Below are positions 2,221-10,247 of a DNA stretch of 64,000 nt, piece by piece (within the stretch, counting starts at the first letter, position 1; every line of letters begins with the position of its first letter). The DNA comes from Schizochytrium sp. TIO01 (taxonomy: Eukaryota > Sar > Bigyra > Thraustochytrida > Thraustochytriidae). The notes under the pieces are model-generated. The model searched no databases, was not told where the DNA came from, and was given only the letters and a program-made list of their open reading frames with translations. The stretch spans positions 1,282,859 through 1,346,858 of the forward strand of contig SMSO01000006.1 in assembly GCA_004764695.1 (NCBI GenBank). The letters run 5' to 3'. Position numbers and translations under genes: made by a program.

Positions 2221-4098
2221 ATGGCGGACGAAGGCGCCGTGGGCGCCACCTCGTCACGAGACTCTCTTCTGCGTCGCTCCATGCGGGCTTTTATGGGTCC
2301 CGTTGCTGCTCTCTCGCGTGCTCACAATGCAGAGGCCCACGATGGCCTCGACGACGTTCAAAACGAAGACGCCAACCAAGGTCTTACTTCAAGTGAAAGT
2401 GCTAGCACTGACCATGGGGAATTGGAGAACGATACTGGTGTAGAGAATCATCTGCAAGCTGTCTTTAAAGACGCAACGAAAGACTCCATGAGCGCTGAAA
2501 ACGCGGCACCATCGAGCTCACCTCACACACGTAGCAGTGGCAAAACCGGACCTTTAGTGGCTCCGAGGAGATCACTTGTGCCTAAAACTCTCTCACGAAG
2601 GGTGTCGGGAGTTAGAATTGTTGGGCGGACGTTTCGTAAACGGGTTGCTGTCGTCGAGCACCCCAACTCACCTTGGATTGCTGAGGTTTGGGGTATATCT
2701 GAGGATGATGATGTTGAGGATCCGATGCCCTCAGAGCGGGTTCGCCTTCAGCGTATCGAGGTTTACCTCGAAGAAGCAAAGTCAGAGGATCCCGAGGCTC
2801 GAATAGTTGGTTTGAGATGCATCAGGCACCTTTTTATGGCATCAGGGAGAGTTCCAATATGGTTGTTGCTGGAGTCAGATTTGCATAGCTCACTAATTGA
2901 AAACCTCAAATCTGGCGCTGATGAAAAACTACTTTTTGAGACCATGTGGGTTGTCGCACAGCTGGCTAAGACTCGCTCTCGAGCAAATATGATGGCACTT
3001 CTGAACAAAGATGCAATTGGAGAAACTGCGCGTATTCTTGATATGTTTGTGAGTCCACGAGTATCCGAGCAAAGCTTACGAGCTCTCAGTCGACTAGCGC
3101 GGACTAGTCTGGACGTCCGTGACCAGATCCTCGCCAATGAGAAAGTTATTCCTGTTTTGACCAGAATTTCTGTCGCGACAGGTCCTACATCAATGTACTG
3201 TGCTCTAGCTTCCGCCATTTGCAGTCTTGTCCAAGGTTCACCTGCGCCTAGCACAGATGCAGTTGTAGACCCACTTATGCCAACTCTTGCTCGTCTCTTT
3301 GAGATACAAGATATCCATGCTATCAATAGCGTTCTGTTCTCCCTGGCTTATCTTTCTGAGAGCAACCCTTCAAGTCTTACTACGATGGTAGAGCTGGGTA
3401 TGACTCCAAAAGTGGCCGCAGCTTTAGATGGCACATTGGCACAAACCTTGAAAGACTTTGAGATGTCTGGATCGCCCGATCATGATGAAAACGAGGACCG
3501 TGAGGATACTGAACTTATGCTCTTAACTCCAGCGTTACGTACTGTTGTCGGTGTTGCATCTACTGGAGAGGACTTCATTCAAGCCATTTTAGATACTGAT
3601 GCGGCTGGCAGCATTGTGCAACTCATTGAACATCCTCGCCGAGACATTCGGGTTCTTGCTTCTAAAGCATTGGCAAACATGTCACTCGGCTCACAGGCTC
3701 AAATTCAAATATTGCTTGATTACGACCTTGCTAAATTGCTGCAAAACCATTTCGAACGGGAAGTGCACGTTACAGTAAAGAAAGGTATCGCTACGTTTCT
3801 TGCAAATGTTTGCACGCGAGGTTCTTCCGAACAAATATCTGAGGTGACTTCCCATGGAGCAGTTCGTATCATGTGGCATGTTGCTAGCCTCATTAATGTA
3901 GGGCGAACTACAGACTTGGTAGTTTCTGCCACTGAGGCAGTACTTGCAAAGATTGACCCTGCAAACATTCGCCAGGTCTTGATTGATATTGAAGAATCGG
4001 GTACATTCGAAGTCCTTGATCGTCAAGATATCAGCGAAGATTATTTTGAGCGCCTGACCGAGGCGATGTTTATGGCAGAGTCTAGAATTGTGGACTAA
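2221..4098 (+). CDS. Importin-alpha-like armadillo-repeat protein
   Basis: A single-exon 625-residue protein. The reading frame stays open back to an ATG at 2128, but the ATG at 2221 sits in a near-ideal Kozak context (ACCACCATGG) and is preferred. Residues 1-150 are Ser/Asp/Glu-rich and look disordered, followed by a basic patch and a short acidic cluster near residue 160. From about residue 170 to the end the protein is all-helical with armadillo-type repeats. The segment near residues 479-510, with ALANMS and QIQILLDYDLAKLLQ, closely resembles the importin-alpha repeat pattern, including the following KKGIATFLANV stretch. By family, such proteins bind nuclear-localisation signals in nuclear import. 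No clear importin-beta-binding domain is visible at the N-terminus, and an acidic insertion (HDENEDREDTE) near residue 421 is unusual. It could be a divergent importin alpha or another armadillo scaffold protein. Confidence 0.88.
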   Translation: MADEGAVGATSSRDSLLRRSMRAFMGPVAALSRAHNAEAHDGLDDVQNEDANQGLTSSESASTDHGELENDTGVENHLQAVFKDATKDSMSAENAAPSSSPHTRSSGKTGPLVAPRRSLVPKTLSRRVSGVRIVGRTFRKRVAVVEHPNSPWIAEVWGISEDDDVEDPMPSERVRLQRIEVYLEEAKSEDPEARIVGLRCIRHLFMASGRVPIWLLLESDLHSSLIENLKSGADEKLLFETMWVVAQLAKTRSRANMMALLNKDAIGETARILDMFVSPRVSEQSLRALSRLARTSLDVRDQILANEKVIPVLTRISVATGPTSMYCALASAICSLVQGSPAPSTDAVVDPLMPTLARLFEIQDIHAINSVLFSLAYLSESNPSSLTTMVELGMTPKVAAALDGTLAQTLKDFEMSGSPDHDENEDREDTELMLLTPALRTVVGVASTGEDFIQAILDTDAAGSIVQLIEHPRRDIRVLASKALANMSLGSQAQIQILLDYDLAKLLQNHFEREVHVTVKKGIATFLANVCTRGSSEQISEVTSHGAVRIMWHVASLINVGRTTDLVVSATEAVLAKIDPANIRQVLIDIEESGTFEVLDRQDISEDYFERLTEAMFMAESRIVD

Positions 4099-4593
4099 AT
4101 GCCTCTAAATGTCTGTGTCTACCTTCACCTCTTTGTTTGAATAGCTAATTATGTGGAAGAACATTGAGCGCACTCTTATCTCTGTCGCTGGCATTTGTTG
4201 AATACGATAAATTCCAAGACTCCAAGTGGATGGCTGCATTGATAAACATCAATCCTGTTTATTCTCTACGCGTGTAGCTATATCATTTTATCCGTGTAGG
4301 AGGGGTACATTACCCACTGATAAACCGAATATCTCGTGAATTTGAAATAGTTCCTTTGAAGCTTTAATCGGATTCTTTGAAGAGGGAGGTGAGAGCGCAT
4401 GCTTTGCGCCTGCATGTGACGACGAAATTCTTCCCTTTCGGTCAGAATCCTTATGGCGGTGAGATGCGCAACACTGCGCAGTGTTTCCGTGCATGCTCGT
4501 ACTACAATCGCCACTTTCCAGAAATGTGTGCGTACCTGGGCGGTGAGTTCCCGCCGCGTCCCGCCGCTTTAAAGGATTGATTCCAACTAAAAC
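4099..4593. other. Convergent intergenic spacer
   Basis: This spacer separates the 3' ends of the armadillo gene (+) and the nuclease-kinase gene (-). It must hold both 3' UTRs. I see no further gene; the 60-80 codon open frames at 4278-4580 overlap on opposite strands and are not convincing. Confidence 0.6.
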
Positions 4594-4628
4594 TTAAATG
4601 TTAAATGTTAAATGTCAAATGTTAAACT
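4594..4628. repeat. TTAAATG heptamer tandem repeat
   Basis: Five head-to-tail copies of a 7-base unit (TTAAATG three times, TCAAATG, TTAAACT) end 29 bases beyond the stop codon of the nuclease-kinase gene. It marks one edge of the unusual 4.6-8.4 kb locus. Confidence 0.85.
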
Positions 4629-4656
4629 TTGCTTGTCTTTTTGGGACTTCTTATTA

Positions 4657-6545
4657 TTATTCAACAAACGCAAAGAGTTTGTCAAAAGCAGCATTATCAT
4701 CTGCAATCATCTTGTCACCTGCTCCAACCGTTGCCATGCCGAAGTCAATCACCCTCACCGCTTCAATGTGGTCAACGACAAAGTTGTTCAACCGAATGTC
4801 ATTGTGCGCAACGCCATACTCGTGCACAGCTGACAGTGCTGCACGCGCCTTGTGCTTGATCTCACTAGTGATCGACGCTTTCGGTAACTGAGAAAGTGCA
4901 TCACCGTGGTACGAGACTGCAATCAGTAAATCGTTGAACATGTGCCTTCCACCGAACAAGTAGAACGGGATGTAAATGCCCATCAGCGGTCGCAGTTCCT
5001 CATACACAGCCATTTCATTCTCGAAGCTTGCAATCGCATCCATCTGATACTGTCTAGAGTCGTTCTTGGGAGTCATAACTTTGGCAACATAATTAACACC
5101 GAATGCCACTGTATGCGCCGAGATTGAGTACTGACCCATCGGGTACTGCTTAACGACACCTTCAAGTCCGCCTCGATACGGAAACTGTGCAACAGTGTAC
5201 GGCAGTGGGTCTTGGAGAGCTTTCAGCTTCTTGATCATTGATTCATCGCCGTCGCTCGAGGAAGTGGTAGTATTCATATTCTGAGTAGCACCCTTGTTAC
5301 CTCTACCCGTGATGCGCTTTGCTGCTTTGACCACTGAGGAAAGAAAACTACTACTACCACCATCACTTTTGCTGCAAAGCATGTCGTACGAGCCTTGCCA
5401 TTGCGTCATATCCTTGATCGCCGTATCACCGACAAACGGAACGGAAGCGAAGATCCTTTCTCGCTCCACATCATTCAAATCAAGTTTTGCATTTTTCAAC
5501 GCGTTCACAATAAAAGCAGCGTATGTAAGCTTGACAGATTTTTCTTCTGTATGCCAGTGCCATAAAATACCTGCGAAACAAGTAATATGTTGTCTGGGTC
5601 CAGTCTCAGAAACCACGTGCGATCCGTCGTACTCAAGACACCGCAGCGGACGCACATACGGAGCATGTACACATAAACCTGTACAATGGGCCACCTGAAG
5701 TCTCTAATTCGGGCGTCCGAGTACTTCTTGACTTTCTCGAAGTGATACCAGTAGTCCTCTAGATCATCATGCACGTTATGAAGAACTTGTTGTTGGAGAA
5801 CTTCTTGAATTTCAACGTGTTGTTCAGATGCGACTTCTTCAGCTTCTTTGAGAACGTCAGCTCGTTTGACGGAGTTGGGAAATTTAGCACAGGCTTTGTG
5901 TTCGTGCACAATTATAGCGTGTCGCAATTCGGGGCCCGTTGCTGGCATACCACAGTGCACGTCTACGCTGTCGGTGGGGACATTAGGATTAGCTGCTCTA
6001 GCGATCGTCCAATCGGTTCGATAACCAGGATGCACGTCTTCGCCGAAAAATTCCAGACCATAACGAGCGAATTCCTCGTTTGTATGAACAACATCATCTA
6101 AGAATGGACCAGTCAACATCCGGTCCATTATAGATACACAAAATTTTTCATTCGGCGTATTAGCATGTCTTTCTGTATTGAAAGGACGGAACAAAACGTT
6201 AAGGACTTGTCCATTCAGGAGCCCCTCTTGACCATCCATGATTTCTTCGATCCTCATTTCTTCGTTGAAGGTACACCACTTTTTCACCGCAGAGGGTACT
6301 AGGTTAAACTTTGACTGAGCGCTAGCTGCCGGTGGGTTGGCATCTGGGAGGCGTCGAGTCAAACTACTTACAGCCCCAGACTCACCGTAATCATGAGTCG
6401 TACCTTCACGAGCCTGTGCTGAGGCCTCTATAGACTCTATCTCTGTGAGTGCGGTTGGTTTCCAAAGTGTTATCAGCATATTAGTGACAAGTGGAAACTG
6501 ACACAACGCCTTGTGTGCCGGTACGAACTCTACGTTGTACGACAT
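4657..6545 (-). CDS. PD-(D/E)xK nuclease-protein kinase of Crinkler/CR type, frame-interrupted
   Basis: Two overlapping minus-strand frames make one gene. The upstream part (6545 down to about 5571) carries a restriction-endonuclease-like fold: Asp178 in YRTDWTIAR, the E215-x-K217 pair in VHEHKACAKF, then a helix with QVYVYMLR and the family-typical VLSTTDRTWFLR at 303-314. The downstream part (ending 4657) is a kinase: Lys in NYVAKVM, catalytic HNDIRLNN and the IDFG metal-binding motif. This REase-kinase order is known from eukaryotic CR/Crinkler-type effectors and transposon-linked proteins. The frame changes between 5570 and 5530. Either one base has been lost or gained (pseudogene or sequence error), or a 41-nt GT-AG intron (5530-5570) is removed, which would also delete part of the linker. 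The kinase ends soon after its DFG motif, so the C-lobe looks short. Start ATG at 6545. A lone kinase-fold pseudoenzyme is less likely. Confidence 0.75.
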
Positions 6546-6554
6546 TGCTCCTAA

Positions 6555-6980
6555 CCCGACTCATCTCAACACACTTCGATTCGACTCGACTCAACTCAAC
6601 TCTGCTCGCGATTCCCCAATTGAGGCTTTGCTTGCTCTTCTTTCTGCTTCGTGTTCACGTCACGTTGCGCGACGCTTTTGCCTGTGTGTTGCGCTACGCT
6701 TTTTGTCCGTGTGCATTCCGCTTTTATCTGTATCACCCGTTGCTCAACTCAACACAACCCGACTCAACTCAACTCATTCTGCTCGCGATGGCCCATTTGA
6801 GGGTTTGCTTGCTCTCTACTTCGTGCGCACGTGACGTTGCGCCACGCTTTTGTCTATGTTTTGTGCTACGCTTTTGTTGTCTCCATTCCCCTTAATCTGT
6901 ATCACCCGTTGCTCAACTCAACTCAACACAACCCGACTCAACTCAACTCAACACAACTCAACTCTGCTCGCGACGGGTAT
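6555..6980. repeat. Tandem repeat of about 180 bp with CTCAA-rich joints
   Basis: Two complete copies and the start of a third can be followed by the marker TCTGCTCGCGA at 6601, 6778 and 6963 (spacings 177 and 185). Each unit contains the pieces TTTGCTTGCTCT, CGTGCG/CACGT, CGTTGCGC, TACGCTTTT and TATCACCCGTTG, and ends in a run of ACTCA and ACACA pentamers. It lies between two divergent genes and begins within 10 bases of the ATG at 6545, so it contains the promoter or replaces it. Confidence 0.9.
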
Positions 6981-7147
6981 CATTAAACAAGCGCTTGTAG
7001 ATTGTGTTTCCTCTCAGCACGTACTGGTTCTTAAAAACATATCATTCCCCATATAGTGTATGTTGTATTGAATTACTATTCCTTTTAATCTATAGTGATA
7101 TTAATTGTGCTTCATTCCTGTAGCACCTGAAACGAAAACCTCTCACG

Positions 7148-8344
7148 ATGATTGATCATTGCCACGCGAACCATCCTCGCTCGTGGCAGCAGGCTAATGT
7201 TCTAGGTGATTATGAGAATGACGCCGAGAGTCACAGCACCGCTACCGTCACGATTGAAGACAATTTGACATCCATGAGTGTCACCAGCACTGATGAACAA
7301 TAGGAAAGGGAGAGCTTGAATCAAATTATGTGGGCTAGGAAACGCCGACATTTACAATATGTACCACCACATGGTCTACTCTCAATGCATTGTATAGAGA
7401 ATGAAACTAAACAATCAATGGCGGTAGACTTGGAGAAAAAAGACATTTACGTTCTTATCGATGGAGAACTTCGCGTCACCATCCATGCCGATAACATTCA
7501 AGCTACTCGTGTATCTCTTGATGGACCGGCTACGCGACTAAATAAAATTAAGCTTGATATTGCATGTGAAGCGATCGAGAAGATGAAGACGAATGTTGAC
7601 CATGGTTTGGTTAAATATCTTACCGAGGAAATTAATAGACAGGAAGAAAACGTCGACAAGCTGCAAGAAAAACAGCACATCCTCTTTAAGCATGCCATTG
7701 GAATTGAGAAAAGGCTACAACTGGAACGTGATGCACGCGAATTTGAAAAGGTATGCATCAATGCTATGTACCAAGGAGCCATAGATGTTAGCGAAGCATT
7801 TACTCTGAGGGCTCGTTACGAAGCAGTCAAAGATGGTGACGGAAATTATCCCAACAGCAAAGTTCCAAAGTTTTACTCTAACAATAAAAAGAATTTAGCT
7901 AAAGAAGAACCCAACAGACAAACCATTAAAAACGCGAAATTTATCGTTCTCAACGTTTTGGAGCCAGAGAATGTTAAGCAAGATCAGCGCATTAAAGTGT
8001 CTGAACAATTAAGCACGAACAGTATCGCAACAGATTTTGGAGGCAGCGATGAACTCATAGAAGCAATGAGATACATAGATGGACTCAAGAAGGAACGTGG
8101 CAATGAAGTGTATGGAGACGCACATTGGAATTTTATGAATATTTTGAATGGAAAGCTTGAGATTGATAAATACCGTCAAACATTCAAAAAACTTATTGAA
8201 AAAGAAACCAAGGAAGTCTATACATCGCTTGAATATAGAAAGGAGAAACTAGAAACGTTTGAGCGCATGATGGATATTTTGTCAAAGTTACGCAAATACC
8301 TCATGTTTAAAGAGCCAAAACCTCAGCAAAATAAAGAAAACTAG
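7148..8344 (+). CDS. Unrecognised basic helical protein, interrupted by an in-frame TAG
   Basis: An ATG at 7148 opens a 51-codon acidic Ser/Thr-rich segment that meets a TAG at 7301-7303. The same frame then continues for 346 codons to a TAG at 8342-8344, with its first ATG at 7328. Past the TAG the protein has a short beta-like stretch (IYVLIDGELRVTIHADNIQ) and then a Lys/Glu-rich helical region with likely coiled coils (EEINRQEENVDKLQEKQ and the C-terminal YRKEKLETFERMM). I do not recognise the family. The sequence before 7148 (a pyrimidine-rich run ending CCTGTAG at 7131) looks like a splice acceptor, so an upstream exon is possible. The gene may be a pseudogene, may start at 7328, or may be read through. 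It is divergent from the nuclease-kinase gene across the tandem repeat, so the two may belong to one element. Confidence 0.6.
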
Positions 8345-8431: not shown

Positions 8432-10247
8432 TTAGTTTGCATGTGAAACTTGAACAAGCACTCGGACAATAAATGGCCTTGAAGACCCCGTGTGCATTTC
8501 AACGGCATTCACAAACCTCCAGAGGTTTTCGAGGTATCGAGGGTTTCGCAACGGCCAATGATACATTTTGAAGAGCGCCAATGCGAGAGCCTGTGAGGCG
8601 GATGCAACACTGGCTTGCGTAAGAGCATTAACGATGCCTGTTACAGAGCGTACTAGTTGCGTAACGAAGGGGTCGAGTTGGTCTCTTGCATCTTTGCGGC
8701 GCTGCACGCCAACAGAAGGTCATTTATGCACTGTCTCTTAGGACACAAGAATTCGTCTCAAAAAGTCAGTGCCTGTAGATTCTTTGATATTGTATTTCTT
8801 TTCCATCCCTGTTCGTCACACAATAATCAACAGTAAATTTATAACACAAAATTGAATACCAGACGAGAGTTAGCACGCATCATAGTTCTAAGTTGCATTC
8901 TGCACCATGAAGCAATCGGACACAACATCCTTTTCTACGATCATGGCTTCAAATAGCGAGCCAAAGCAATACAAAGGAGTCATGTCCATATAAACTGTAC
9001 AAATATCCTTGCCTGAATGTCTAAACTATAAAATTATCAAGCTAGCGATCGTAAGCATTTTCCAACCAAGTATATTCAACGTTTACACTCATAGTTGCTT
9101 CCAGAGCATGCTGAACTATTCTGTGCCGTAATGTTCAATACAACAAGTGAATTGGTCAAGTATATGATGTATGAGCAGCTTCCAAATAGGAGTCAAATTA
9201 TATTCAATAGGATACTGATTTTCTCTGTGATTCTTTGCAATTTGTCTGAGGTAATCCGTAGATTTGACAGACACCTGTTGGAGAGTTCACCATTCCATGA
9301 AGATACTGGATGGTTTTGTCAGTTATTTGGTCGATTCCAACACATTACCTTTCAAGAAAACATTTTAGTAGCTTAATTGATTGCGTTGGCTGGGCACTCA
9401 ATCAGTTGTGAACAACACCTGAAAAGTTTCGAACAGTAACAAAAAAACGAGCTCTGCTACCTCTATGATGAAACGAGTGCCGTCAGGTGCACTACTACCT
9501 ACAGATAGGAGAGCTGCACTGATAGGGGATGAAAAGCAAACATGTTTCAGTGAAACTAGAGCTGCTGCTACAGGCTATATGCGATATTTGCAGTACATAT
9601 TTCGATTAAAAGTCTCCTCTCGTGTACCTGCTATATGTTGACACAGAGGTTACACTATTCTTTCTCTCTCAGCGTATGAGCGTTGATAAAGGGACAAGAA
9701 AAGAAAAGCCTCCTCAGCCCCTTCCAAATTAAAGCTAGCTCGAGGGATTCTTCTTGCCAGTTGCTGGGCTTGATTCAATATGTTTTGGGAGGATCTTTTA
9801 AATCGGTGACCTTCGACTTCAAGTTGAAAAAAATTAAAGAGATAAAGACCTTCTGCACCTTATTGTTTTAGCATCGAGGAATGCCTTTGTTAAAATCATA
9901 ACTCCGAACGTTATAAAATGCTATCCTGCATTTCATAAAACTCTGAGCCCGTGCAACCATTCGGGCACGTCTAAAACCTTACATGATTTCTTCAAGTTGC
10001 TGGCCTCTCCCTATTATTCACTGCTCAGGCTTCATAGTTGTTCCACCCATGGTAAACTGCATACATCTTAACGATGTTGTTGCTACTTTCACAGGCATTC
10101 ATACTTAGGCTTATTCCAATTGGAATTTATTAAAGACGTAGGTACCACATGCTACTATGAGTGATTGTTGTAACTTGAGTTTTTACCAATCATGTCAAAG
10201 AATTGCGATGAGGAGCCTCTGACTAGTGAGAGTGCTTCGCCTCTCAT
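8432..10247 (-). CDS. Proposed six-exon gene, helical protein of unknown function
   Basis: This gene was assembled by reading the minus strand. Proposed exons are 10247-10187, 9852-9654, 9518-9419, 9274-9142, 9012-8906 and 8701-8432. All introns are GT-AG and the phases agree at every junction (1, 2, 0, 1, 0), giving 289 residues. The first ATG has a strong context (GCCACCATGAG). Internal introns are 129-204 nt; the first is 334 nt and could hide one more exon. The exons encode Leu-rich helical sequence, for example NQAQQLARRIPRASFN, GTRFIIEVAELVFLLLFETF and YNLTPIWKLLIHHILDQF. The last exon is the longest, with RYLENLWRFVNAVEMHTG. The pattern is compatible with a HEAT/ARM-like fold, but I do not recognise the family. 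It is divergent from the pdxT-like gene. Individual splice sites are weak (GTGTTG, GTATTG, GTGCAG), so exact borders may be wrong. An antisense 93-codon frame at 9095-9376 is codon-aligned to exon four and is probably its shadow. Confidence 0.5.

What the first reader, a model, noticed from the sequence alone, without database searches (positions are those of the whole stretch)
4657..6545. Nuclease-kinase of Crinkler/CR type with a frame change between its two domains
The sequence directly shows a D178 / E215-x-K217 nuclease signature and VLSTTDRTWFLR in one frame, and a kinase with HNDIRLNN and IDFG in another, overlapping at 5505-5694. REase-kinase fusions are known as eukaryotic effector or transposon-derived proteins. 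The frame switch is explained either by a one-base indel or by a 41-nt GT-AG intron (5530-5570), much shorter than the pdxT introns (207 and 179 nt). Either outcome matters: a dead effector-like gene, or ultra-short intron splicing.
Basis: partly seen in the sequence, partly recalled or inferred. Interest (0 to 1): 0.75.

Follow-up and report, generated by a model that had tools for sequence, protein, structure and literature searches.

The report
Frameshifted copy of a nuclease-kinase gene
This is one broken copy of a gene family that joins a probable DNA-cutting enzyme to a kinase, in what looks like a free-living marine protist; the broken copy is ordinary, but some intact relatives show signs of an arms race centred on the DNA-cutting half.

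Summary
In detail: two same-strand frames (351 and 348 aa) carry a D...E-x-K half and a kinase half. It is not an intron. Three intact paralogues and one metagenome protein read through the switch in one 627-628-aa frame, and 6 of 6 copies carry the proposed 41-nt "intron" with 39 bases aligned. The window copy is frameshifted, by mutation or assembly indel. Its pieces keep 55 of 55 covered family-invariant residues.

The family resembles CR REase-kinases and fungal Spok poison-antidote proteins: D, E-x-K, QxxxY, then a kinase catalytic set. No profile or usable model confirms the nuclease fold. The genome looks like a thraustochytrid; "injected effector" is not supported.

Beyond the finding: in some close pairs, not all, the nuclease half changes amino acids faster than silent sites while the kinase is conserved. 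Two relatives flank a heliorhodopsin gene in a segment found at four places; the heliorhodopsin protein is unchanged in three, while the nuclease-kinases diverge. A poison-antidote or conflict role is the best inference, untested.

The parts
5505..6545 (-). Nuclease half in frame A, from ATG to the stop at 5505; about the last 16 residues lie past the frame switch and are not homologous to the family
   Evidence: ORF; 69-75% identical to L002, L003, L004 and P0001; 18 of 18 covered family-invariant residues kept
4657..5703 (-). Kinase half in frame B (stop-to-stop); homologous to the family from about 5544 downstream
   Evidence: ORF; 83-90% identical to L002, L003, L004 and P0001; 37 of 37 covered invariant residues kept; Pkinase PF00069 29.3 bits, cut-off 31.7
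5530..5570 (-). Frame-switch zone, proposed as a 41-nt GT-AG intron; matches coding DNA in the three intact copies
   Evidence: 6 of 6 copies (3 intact, 3 broken) align 39 of 41 bases, 31-37 identical, GT and AG present in all
6012..6221 (-). Window equivalent of the hypervariable block before the catalytic residues (family residues 109-178; D178 codon at 6012-6014)
   Evidence: block edges chosen after seeing the alignment; coordinates by arithmetic from frame A
5895..5903 (-). Catalytic E215-x-K217
   Evidence: coordinates by arithmetic
5667..5681 (-). QxxxY motif (Q289-Y293, QVYVY)
   Evidence: coordinates by arithmetic
6582..6950 (.). Tandem repeat (period about 170, 2.1 copies) in the 5' flank; the four paralogue loci examined show one unit per gene
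4205..7121 (.). Stretch shared with dispersed paralogue copies, from the 3' flank to the 5' flank, with gaps; the window loses the shared 3' flank at about 4205, where other copies go on sharing

Best explanation
The locus is a frameshifted copy of a multi-copy nuclease-kinase gene. A small length change, not a multiple of three, in the 5530-5570 zone puts the kinase half out of frame, so the gene as assembled would give a nuclease-only protein ending at 5505 (shown for the assembly; real mutation or assembly indel not resolved). The intact family members most likely work as a PD-(D/E)xK nuclease that is toxic to DNA and a linked kinase that restrains or neutralises it, as tested for Spok and as proposed for CR REase-kinases (inferred). 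In some pairs the nuclease half, above all the block before the catalytic E-x-K, shows more amino-acid than silent change while the kinase is conserved (counted, not in every pair), which suggests competition over target or partner specificity (inferred).
For: Three intact paralogues L002, L003, L004 (628, 628, 627 aa) and metagenome protein P0001 (628 aa, 86% to L002) run through the switch in one frame. The 'intron' stretch is present in 6 of 6 copies. 55 of 55 covered family-invariant residues are kept in the two window pieces (one listed position lies between the pieces). Motifs over 21 proteins: D 20 of 20 (1 gap), E 21, K 20, Q 21, Y 18 of 21; kinase K 21, E 21, HxD D 20, N 20, DFG D 21 of 21. 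Selection: L009-L010, 68 codons lying 105-37 residues before ExK: 35.8 nonsynonymous/162 sites against 2.2 synonymous/42, bootstrap 0 of 2000, kinase 0 and 0; three pairs of L002, L003, L004: block ratios 1.64-2.57 (bootstrap 8-71 of 2000), kinase 0.18-0.37. Window piece A against the three: block ratios 1.20-1.91. Repeated segment: gene 2 C7-C31 47 nonsynonymous against 3 synonymous (no bootstrap), heliorhodopsin 0 nonsynonymous and at most 2 synonymous in 3 of 3 pairs. Spok: nuclease needed for killing, kinase for resistance (PMC6660238 passages); SPOK1 acts on DNA (PMC9972908 passages). CR REase-kinase: toxicity put down to the REase, regulation to the kinase (PMC5289972 passages).
Against: No significant Pfam match to the nuclease half and only kinases in the 60 rows shown of 2344 of the PDB profile search. 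Both structure models are too poor to confirm the fold (mean pLDDT 40.7 and 40.6). No expression, toxicity or inheritance data exist here. Several pairs do not show the contrast: in five pairs among L062-L067 the block ratio is 0.80-1.13, and the kinase ratio is 1.01 in L062-L063, 0.81 in L064-L065 and 1.49 on 6 changes in L064-L066. Gene 1 of the repeated segment has whole-gene ratios of 0.89-1.78, with bootstrap 40-435 of 1000 in the five pairs bootstrapped. The counts are pairwise Nei-Gojobori, pairs share sequences, block edges were set after seeing the data, and no codon model was fitted.
Confidence: 0.6

Rival explanations
1. A 41-nt GT-AG intron at 5530-5570 is spliced out and the gene is intact.
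For: GT and AG stand at the right places, and by arithmetic removal of 41 bases would bring the two frames together.
Against: Six of 6 other copies carry the same GT, AG and stretch with 39 bases aligned, coding in the three intact ones, so the signals are part of coding sequence. Removal would delete about 13 residues including S336, invariant in five proteins.
Confidence: 0.05
2. The break is an assembly or sequencing indel and the real gene is intact.
For: All 55 covered invariant residues are kept. The PUFA synthase match on C4 also falls in two different frames, which could be an assembly indel or an intron. A neighbouring stretch has no second copy in the assembly to compare.
Against: Broken relatives are common in this genome: loci with internal stops at C36, C30, C31, C13 and C33, so decay is normal for the family.
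Confidence: 0.35
3. The family are secreted CR/CRN effectors injected into a host cell.
For: REase-kinase C-termini are about one sixth of CR C-termini in the review seen (PMC5289972 passages).
Against: No Crinkler header PF20147 and no elicitin found in the genome (neither search had a positive control). The genome looks like a thraustochytrid (free-living habit recalled). The same review says CR proteins occur in free-living eukaryotes too.
Confidence: 0.1
4. The proteins are intracellular defence nucleases against viruses, with the kinase as regulator or sensor.
For: The genome holds a heliorhodopsin-bearing segment that may be viral, and the nuclease half diversifies in some pairs.
Against: Members are also carried in that segment, more like a selfish or addiction module. 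PADLOC matches in the rows shown fall in the kinase apart from three weak ones in N-terminal stretches (SIR2, JetC, LmuB).
Confidence: 0.25

Closest known systems
Spok proteins (Podospora spore killers; PMC6660238 and PMC9972908, passages seen)
   Same: One protein with PD-(D/E)xK motif, QxxxY motif, then a kinase; multi-copy; in Spok the nuclease half kills and the kinase half protects
   Different: No Spok sequence was compared here; Spok's N-terminal coiled-coil and cysteine cluster were not tested; no drive shown; organism is probably a thraustochytrid, not an ascomycete
CR (Crinkler-RHS) REase-kinase proteins (Zhang et al. 2016, seen only through passages of the review PMC5289972)
   Same: REase domain coupled to a kinase; found also in free-living eukaryotes
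   Different: No Crinkler header found (search without positive control); secretion not shown
Protein kinase, APH, Kdo and Bud32 families
   Same: The kinase half matches them: Pkinase over its cut-off in L009, L010 and L013, APH over cut-off in L069 and Kdo in L063, others near or under; arch_bud32 21-34 bits in nine of nine proteins scanned
   Different: arch_bud32 is far under its cut-off of 125 bits; these families carry no nuclease half (recalled)

Membership tests
CR / Crinkler proteins | REase-superfamily nuclease joined to a kinase | tested here: met
   Met by motif in 21 proteins; nuclease fold itself not confirmed by profile or model
CR / Crinkler proteins | Crinkler header (PF20147, LXLFLAK/Ubl) | tested here: inconclusive
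   0 matches in the genome, but no control genome rang either; window piece A has no such Pfam hit
CR / Crinkler proteins | Secretion or transfer into another cell | not testable with these tools
   none
Spok | D...ExK, QxxxY and kinase catalytic aspartate in this order in one protein | tested here: met
   Spok features from PMC6660238 passages
Spok | Sequence homology to Spok proteins | not tested
   No Spok sequence was fetched
Spok | Killing and resistance by the same protein | not testable with these tools
   none
PD-(D/E)xK superfamily | Catalytic D, E-x-K | tested here: met
   D 20 of 20 with 1 gap, E 21 of 21, K 20 of 21
PD-(D/E)xK superfamily | Profile or fold match | tested here: inconclusive
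   No significant Pfam match; models pLDDT about 41; no fold search was run

The most novel reading that the evidence does not exclude
A free-living thraustochytrid and mirusvirus-like elements in its genome share a large family of single-protein poison-antidote genes. A hypervariable, shuffled block of the nuclease half sets specificity under diversifying selection, while the kinase antidote stays constant, so host and virus-like elements compete through gene-drive or addiction modules.
Probability: 0.2. Interest if true: 0.85.

Novelty: new member of a known kind. Interest (0 to 1): 0.5.

Why it matters
The window copy itself is a frameshifted gene of a known architecture. What makes it worth a look is the family: it offers a testable case, outside fungi, of a single protein that may be both poison and antidote, with the fastest-changing part pinned to a short block in several pairs and a natural control (an unchanged heliorhodopsin beside diverged nuclease-kinases).

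Tried and rejected
Rejected: the 41-nt intron. Rejected as unneeded: programmed frameshifting, since the three intact paralogues need none. Tried without result: a transposon around the copies. Ends differ between copies; the one inverted pair in 4000-7600 lies inside the gene; the ORFs of 120 aa or more in L053 (three) and L055 (none) were looked at by eye only and none looked like a transposase; L054 was not listed and no family scan was made of these flanks. Viral relatives in IMG/VR: 15 pattern matches, none confirmed; records near this genome may be left out there. Structure: two models, both too poor to search, so no fold search was run. A 22,359-aa frame at C35 runs into a stretch of N. 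Papers: none in the library holds both Spok and Crinkler as whole words; one holds thraustochytrid and Crinkler, seen as a listing only. Zhang 2016 and PMC12606086 are not held.

Row handling: the count of 20 open frames (no stop, frame over 400 aa, query start at most 455, end at least 740) leaves out one more match, C36:2273979, because its upstream half has stops; C34:518452 (477 aa) and C13:4901929 (431 aa) are counted though their frames are short. One search stopped before the last gene-1 pair and part-way through the first gene-2 pair through script faults; supply the missing rows. The 1503-aa control gene was compared for one pair only (C7-C35), and the broken C31 copy was left out of the heliorhodopsin comparison.

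Full report
Observation. On the minus strand two long frames overlap: A, 5505-6560 (ATG at 6545), and B, 4657-5703. Both are far longer than chance: in 1000 mononucleotide shuffles the longest frame was 180 aa and none gave a second frame of 300 aa.

What it is. The same genome (64.06 Mb, 37 contigs, unnamed) holds three intact paralogues in one uninterrupted frame: L002 and L004, neighbours on C6, and L003 on C4. Frame A residues 1-346 and frame B residues shifted by 280 fall on one 627-628-aa protein. P0001, from a metagenome, is 86% identical to L002 over its whole length. Many further copies are broken: matches with internal stops or in pieces lie at C36, C30, C31, C13 and C33, and a kinase fragment lies elsewhere on C5.

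Intron or frameshift. In 6 of 6 copies examined (L002, L003, L004 intact; the C36, C31 and C13 copies broken) the DNA matching 5530-5570 is present with 39 of 41 bases aligned and the same GT and AG. Over the 300-base span the length difference to the window modulo 3 is 1 in five copies and 2 in the broken C13 copy. In the intact copies the signals are coding sequence. Splicing would remove about residues 326-338, including S336, invariant in the five-protein alignment. The window copy is frameshifted. Whether the change is in the organism or in the assembly cannot be told. Its pieces keep 18 of 18 and 37 of 37 covered invariant positions of the nine-protein alignment, so the break looks recent or artificial. 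Private changes of the window copy are 2 synonymous and 19 nonsynonymous in piece A and 12 and 13 in piece B, more in total than any of the three paralogues in either piece; relaxation or simply a longer branch would both fit.

Organism. A Hondaea fermentalgiana protein is the only relative with an organism name (P0004), and a PfaA-type PUFA synthase stands over cut-off on C4. That such synthases and Hondaea mark thraustochytrids, and that these are free-living, is recalled. Elicitins and the Crinkler header were not found, but neither search had a positive control. A thraustochytrid is the likely source.

Domains. Over 21 proteins (16 open frames from this genome, 5 from the protein collection; several nearly alike) the nuclease residues D178, E215, K217, Q289 and Y293 are kept in 20 of 20 (one gap), 21, 20, 21 and 18; kinase K488, E510, D582, N587 and D600 in 21, 21, 20, 20 and 21. 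L002 itself has H at Y293; L022 lacks the kinase HxD aspartate and asparagine. Pfam sees Pkinase in 20 of 21 at E up to 0.5 and no nuclease; HSDR_N_2 at E 0.2 in one member is chance level. The PDB profile search shows kinases only in its 60 best rows of 2344. Both structure models are unusable. The nuclease assignment is thus by motif. QxxxY after ExK is what the Spok paper describes for SPOK3 (PMC6660238 passages).

Size of the family. With P0005 as query, 20 of 64 matches are single uninterrupted frames over 400 aa that match from the nuclease end to the kinase (one broken match left out). A search with L068's 701-aa member gave 71 matches; with the kinase piece, 108, some of which may be ordinary kinases. 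These lists are lower bounds by the tool's own words.

Selection. Pairwise Nei-Gojobori counts on nine pairs; block edges were chosen after seeing the alignment. In L009-L010 the 68 codons 105-37 residues before ExK hold 35.8 nonsynonymous changes on 162 sites and 2.2 synonymous on 42 (bootstrap 0 of 2000); the next 40 codons 8 and 0, ExK to VLST 10 and 0, the kinase 0 and 0. In the three pairs among L002, L003 and L004 the block ratio is 1.64-2.57 (bootstrap 8-71 of 2000) and the kinase 0.18-0.37. Window piece A against those three gives 1.20-1.91 in residues 109-178 (bootstrap 0.310, 0.036, 0.048). Against: in the five pairs among L062-L067 the block ratio is 0.80-1.13 and the kinase 0.30-1.49, so there the picture is relaxed or saturated rather than diversifying. 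The block also looks shuffled: L010 and P0002 are 97% identical at residues 151-187 where L009 and L010 are 59%, although L009 and L010 are 96% over residues 1-118, where L010 and P0002 are 78-90%.

Repeated segment. At C7:818500-834500 two nuclease-kinases (701 and 712 aa) flank a 1503-aa protein without Pfam match, a heliorhodopsin (PF18761, 110.5 bits, cut-off 26.7) and a 203-aa protein. The heliorhodopsin recurs, 100% identical, at C13 and C35 and, broken, at C31, with both nuclease-kinases at each of the four places; related pieces lie at C33, C34 and C36. Heliorhodopsins are listed among the core functions of most mirusviruses (PMC12768974 passages), which is why I call the segment possibly mirusvirus-like. 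That is weak: heliorhodopsins also occur in cells (recalled), this genome has others on C1, C2 and C33, and no capsid gene was sought; the 203-aa protein looks to me like a RuvC-type resolvase (recalled), but Pfam shows only INTS5_N at E 0.012. Between copies heliorhodopsin has 0 nonsynonymous changes in 3 of 3 pairs; the 1503-aa gene has dN 0.010 and dS 0.023 in the one pair compared. Gene 2 has whole-gene ratios of 1.27-4.52 in 6 of 6 pairs, not bootstrapped. Gene 1 has 0.89-1.78 in six pairs, bootstrap 40-435 of 1000 in the five done, so it is only suggestive; its C13 and C31 copies are identical from the nuclease block to the end but 77% in the N-terminal part, again a mosaic.

Mechanism. 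The best-supported reading is a toxic nuclease with a linked kinase that restrains it. Shown: architecture, motifs, copy number, the selection pattern in some pairs. Inferred: toxicity, antidote role, targets. Spok gives the tested precedent; the CR review proposes the same split of roles. The window copy, as assembled, would make a nuclease without its kinase, with intact copies elsewhere in the genome.

Verdict. The finding is a broken member of a known kind; the intron is rejected. The family-level pattern deserves follow-up.

Noticed in passing
L068 and L069 (C7:818500-834500); also C35, C13, C31: Repeated, possibly virus-like segment: two nuclease-kinases flanking a 1503-aa protein, a heliorhodopsin and a 203-aa protein; the heliorhodopsin protein is unchanged in three copies (broken in the fourth) while the nuclease-kinases diverge.
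   Followed up: partly
G000:C4:608161-617209: PfaA-type PUFA synthase match lies in two different reading frames (1031 and 2172 aa open); intron, assembly indel or real break not resolved.
   Followed up: no
P0005 residues 1-68; G000:C25:32339-32560 and G000:C3:34772-34993: The start of the N-terminal extension of the 789-aa nuclease-kinase matches at C25 and C3 (74-75%, one stop each) with no further P0005 match listed within a few kb; a match at C35 runs into N, and one at C13 lies beside broken kinase pieces. It may be a separate header-type module.
   Followed up: no
window 6582-6950: A unit of about 170 bp in the 5' flank is duplicated in the window copy; one unit per gene in the four paralogue loci examined.
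   Followed up: partly
L052 1392-1885 against window 4654-4940 and 8447-8704: On C7 near 975.5 kb a kinase fragment like the window's stands next to DNA like window 8447-8704, which lies 3.5 kb away in the window.
   Followed up: no
L022: A divergent nuclease-kinase of 735 aa whose kinase half lacks the HxD aspartate and the asparagine: a likely pseudokinase with the nuclease residues kept.
   Followed up: partly
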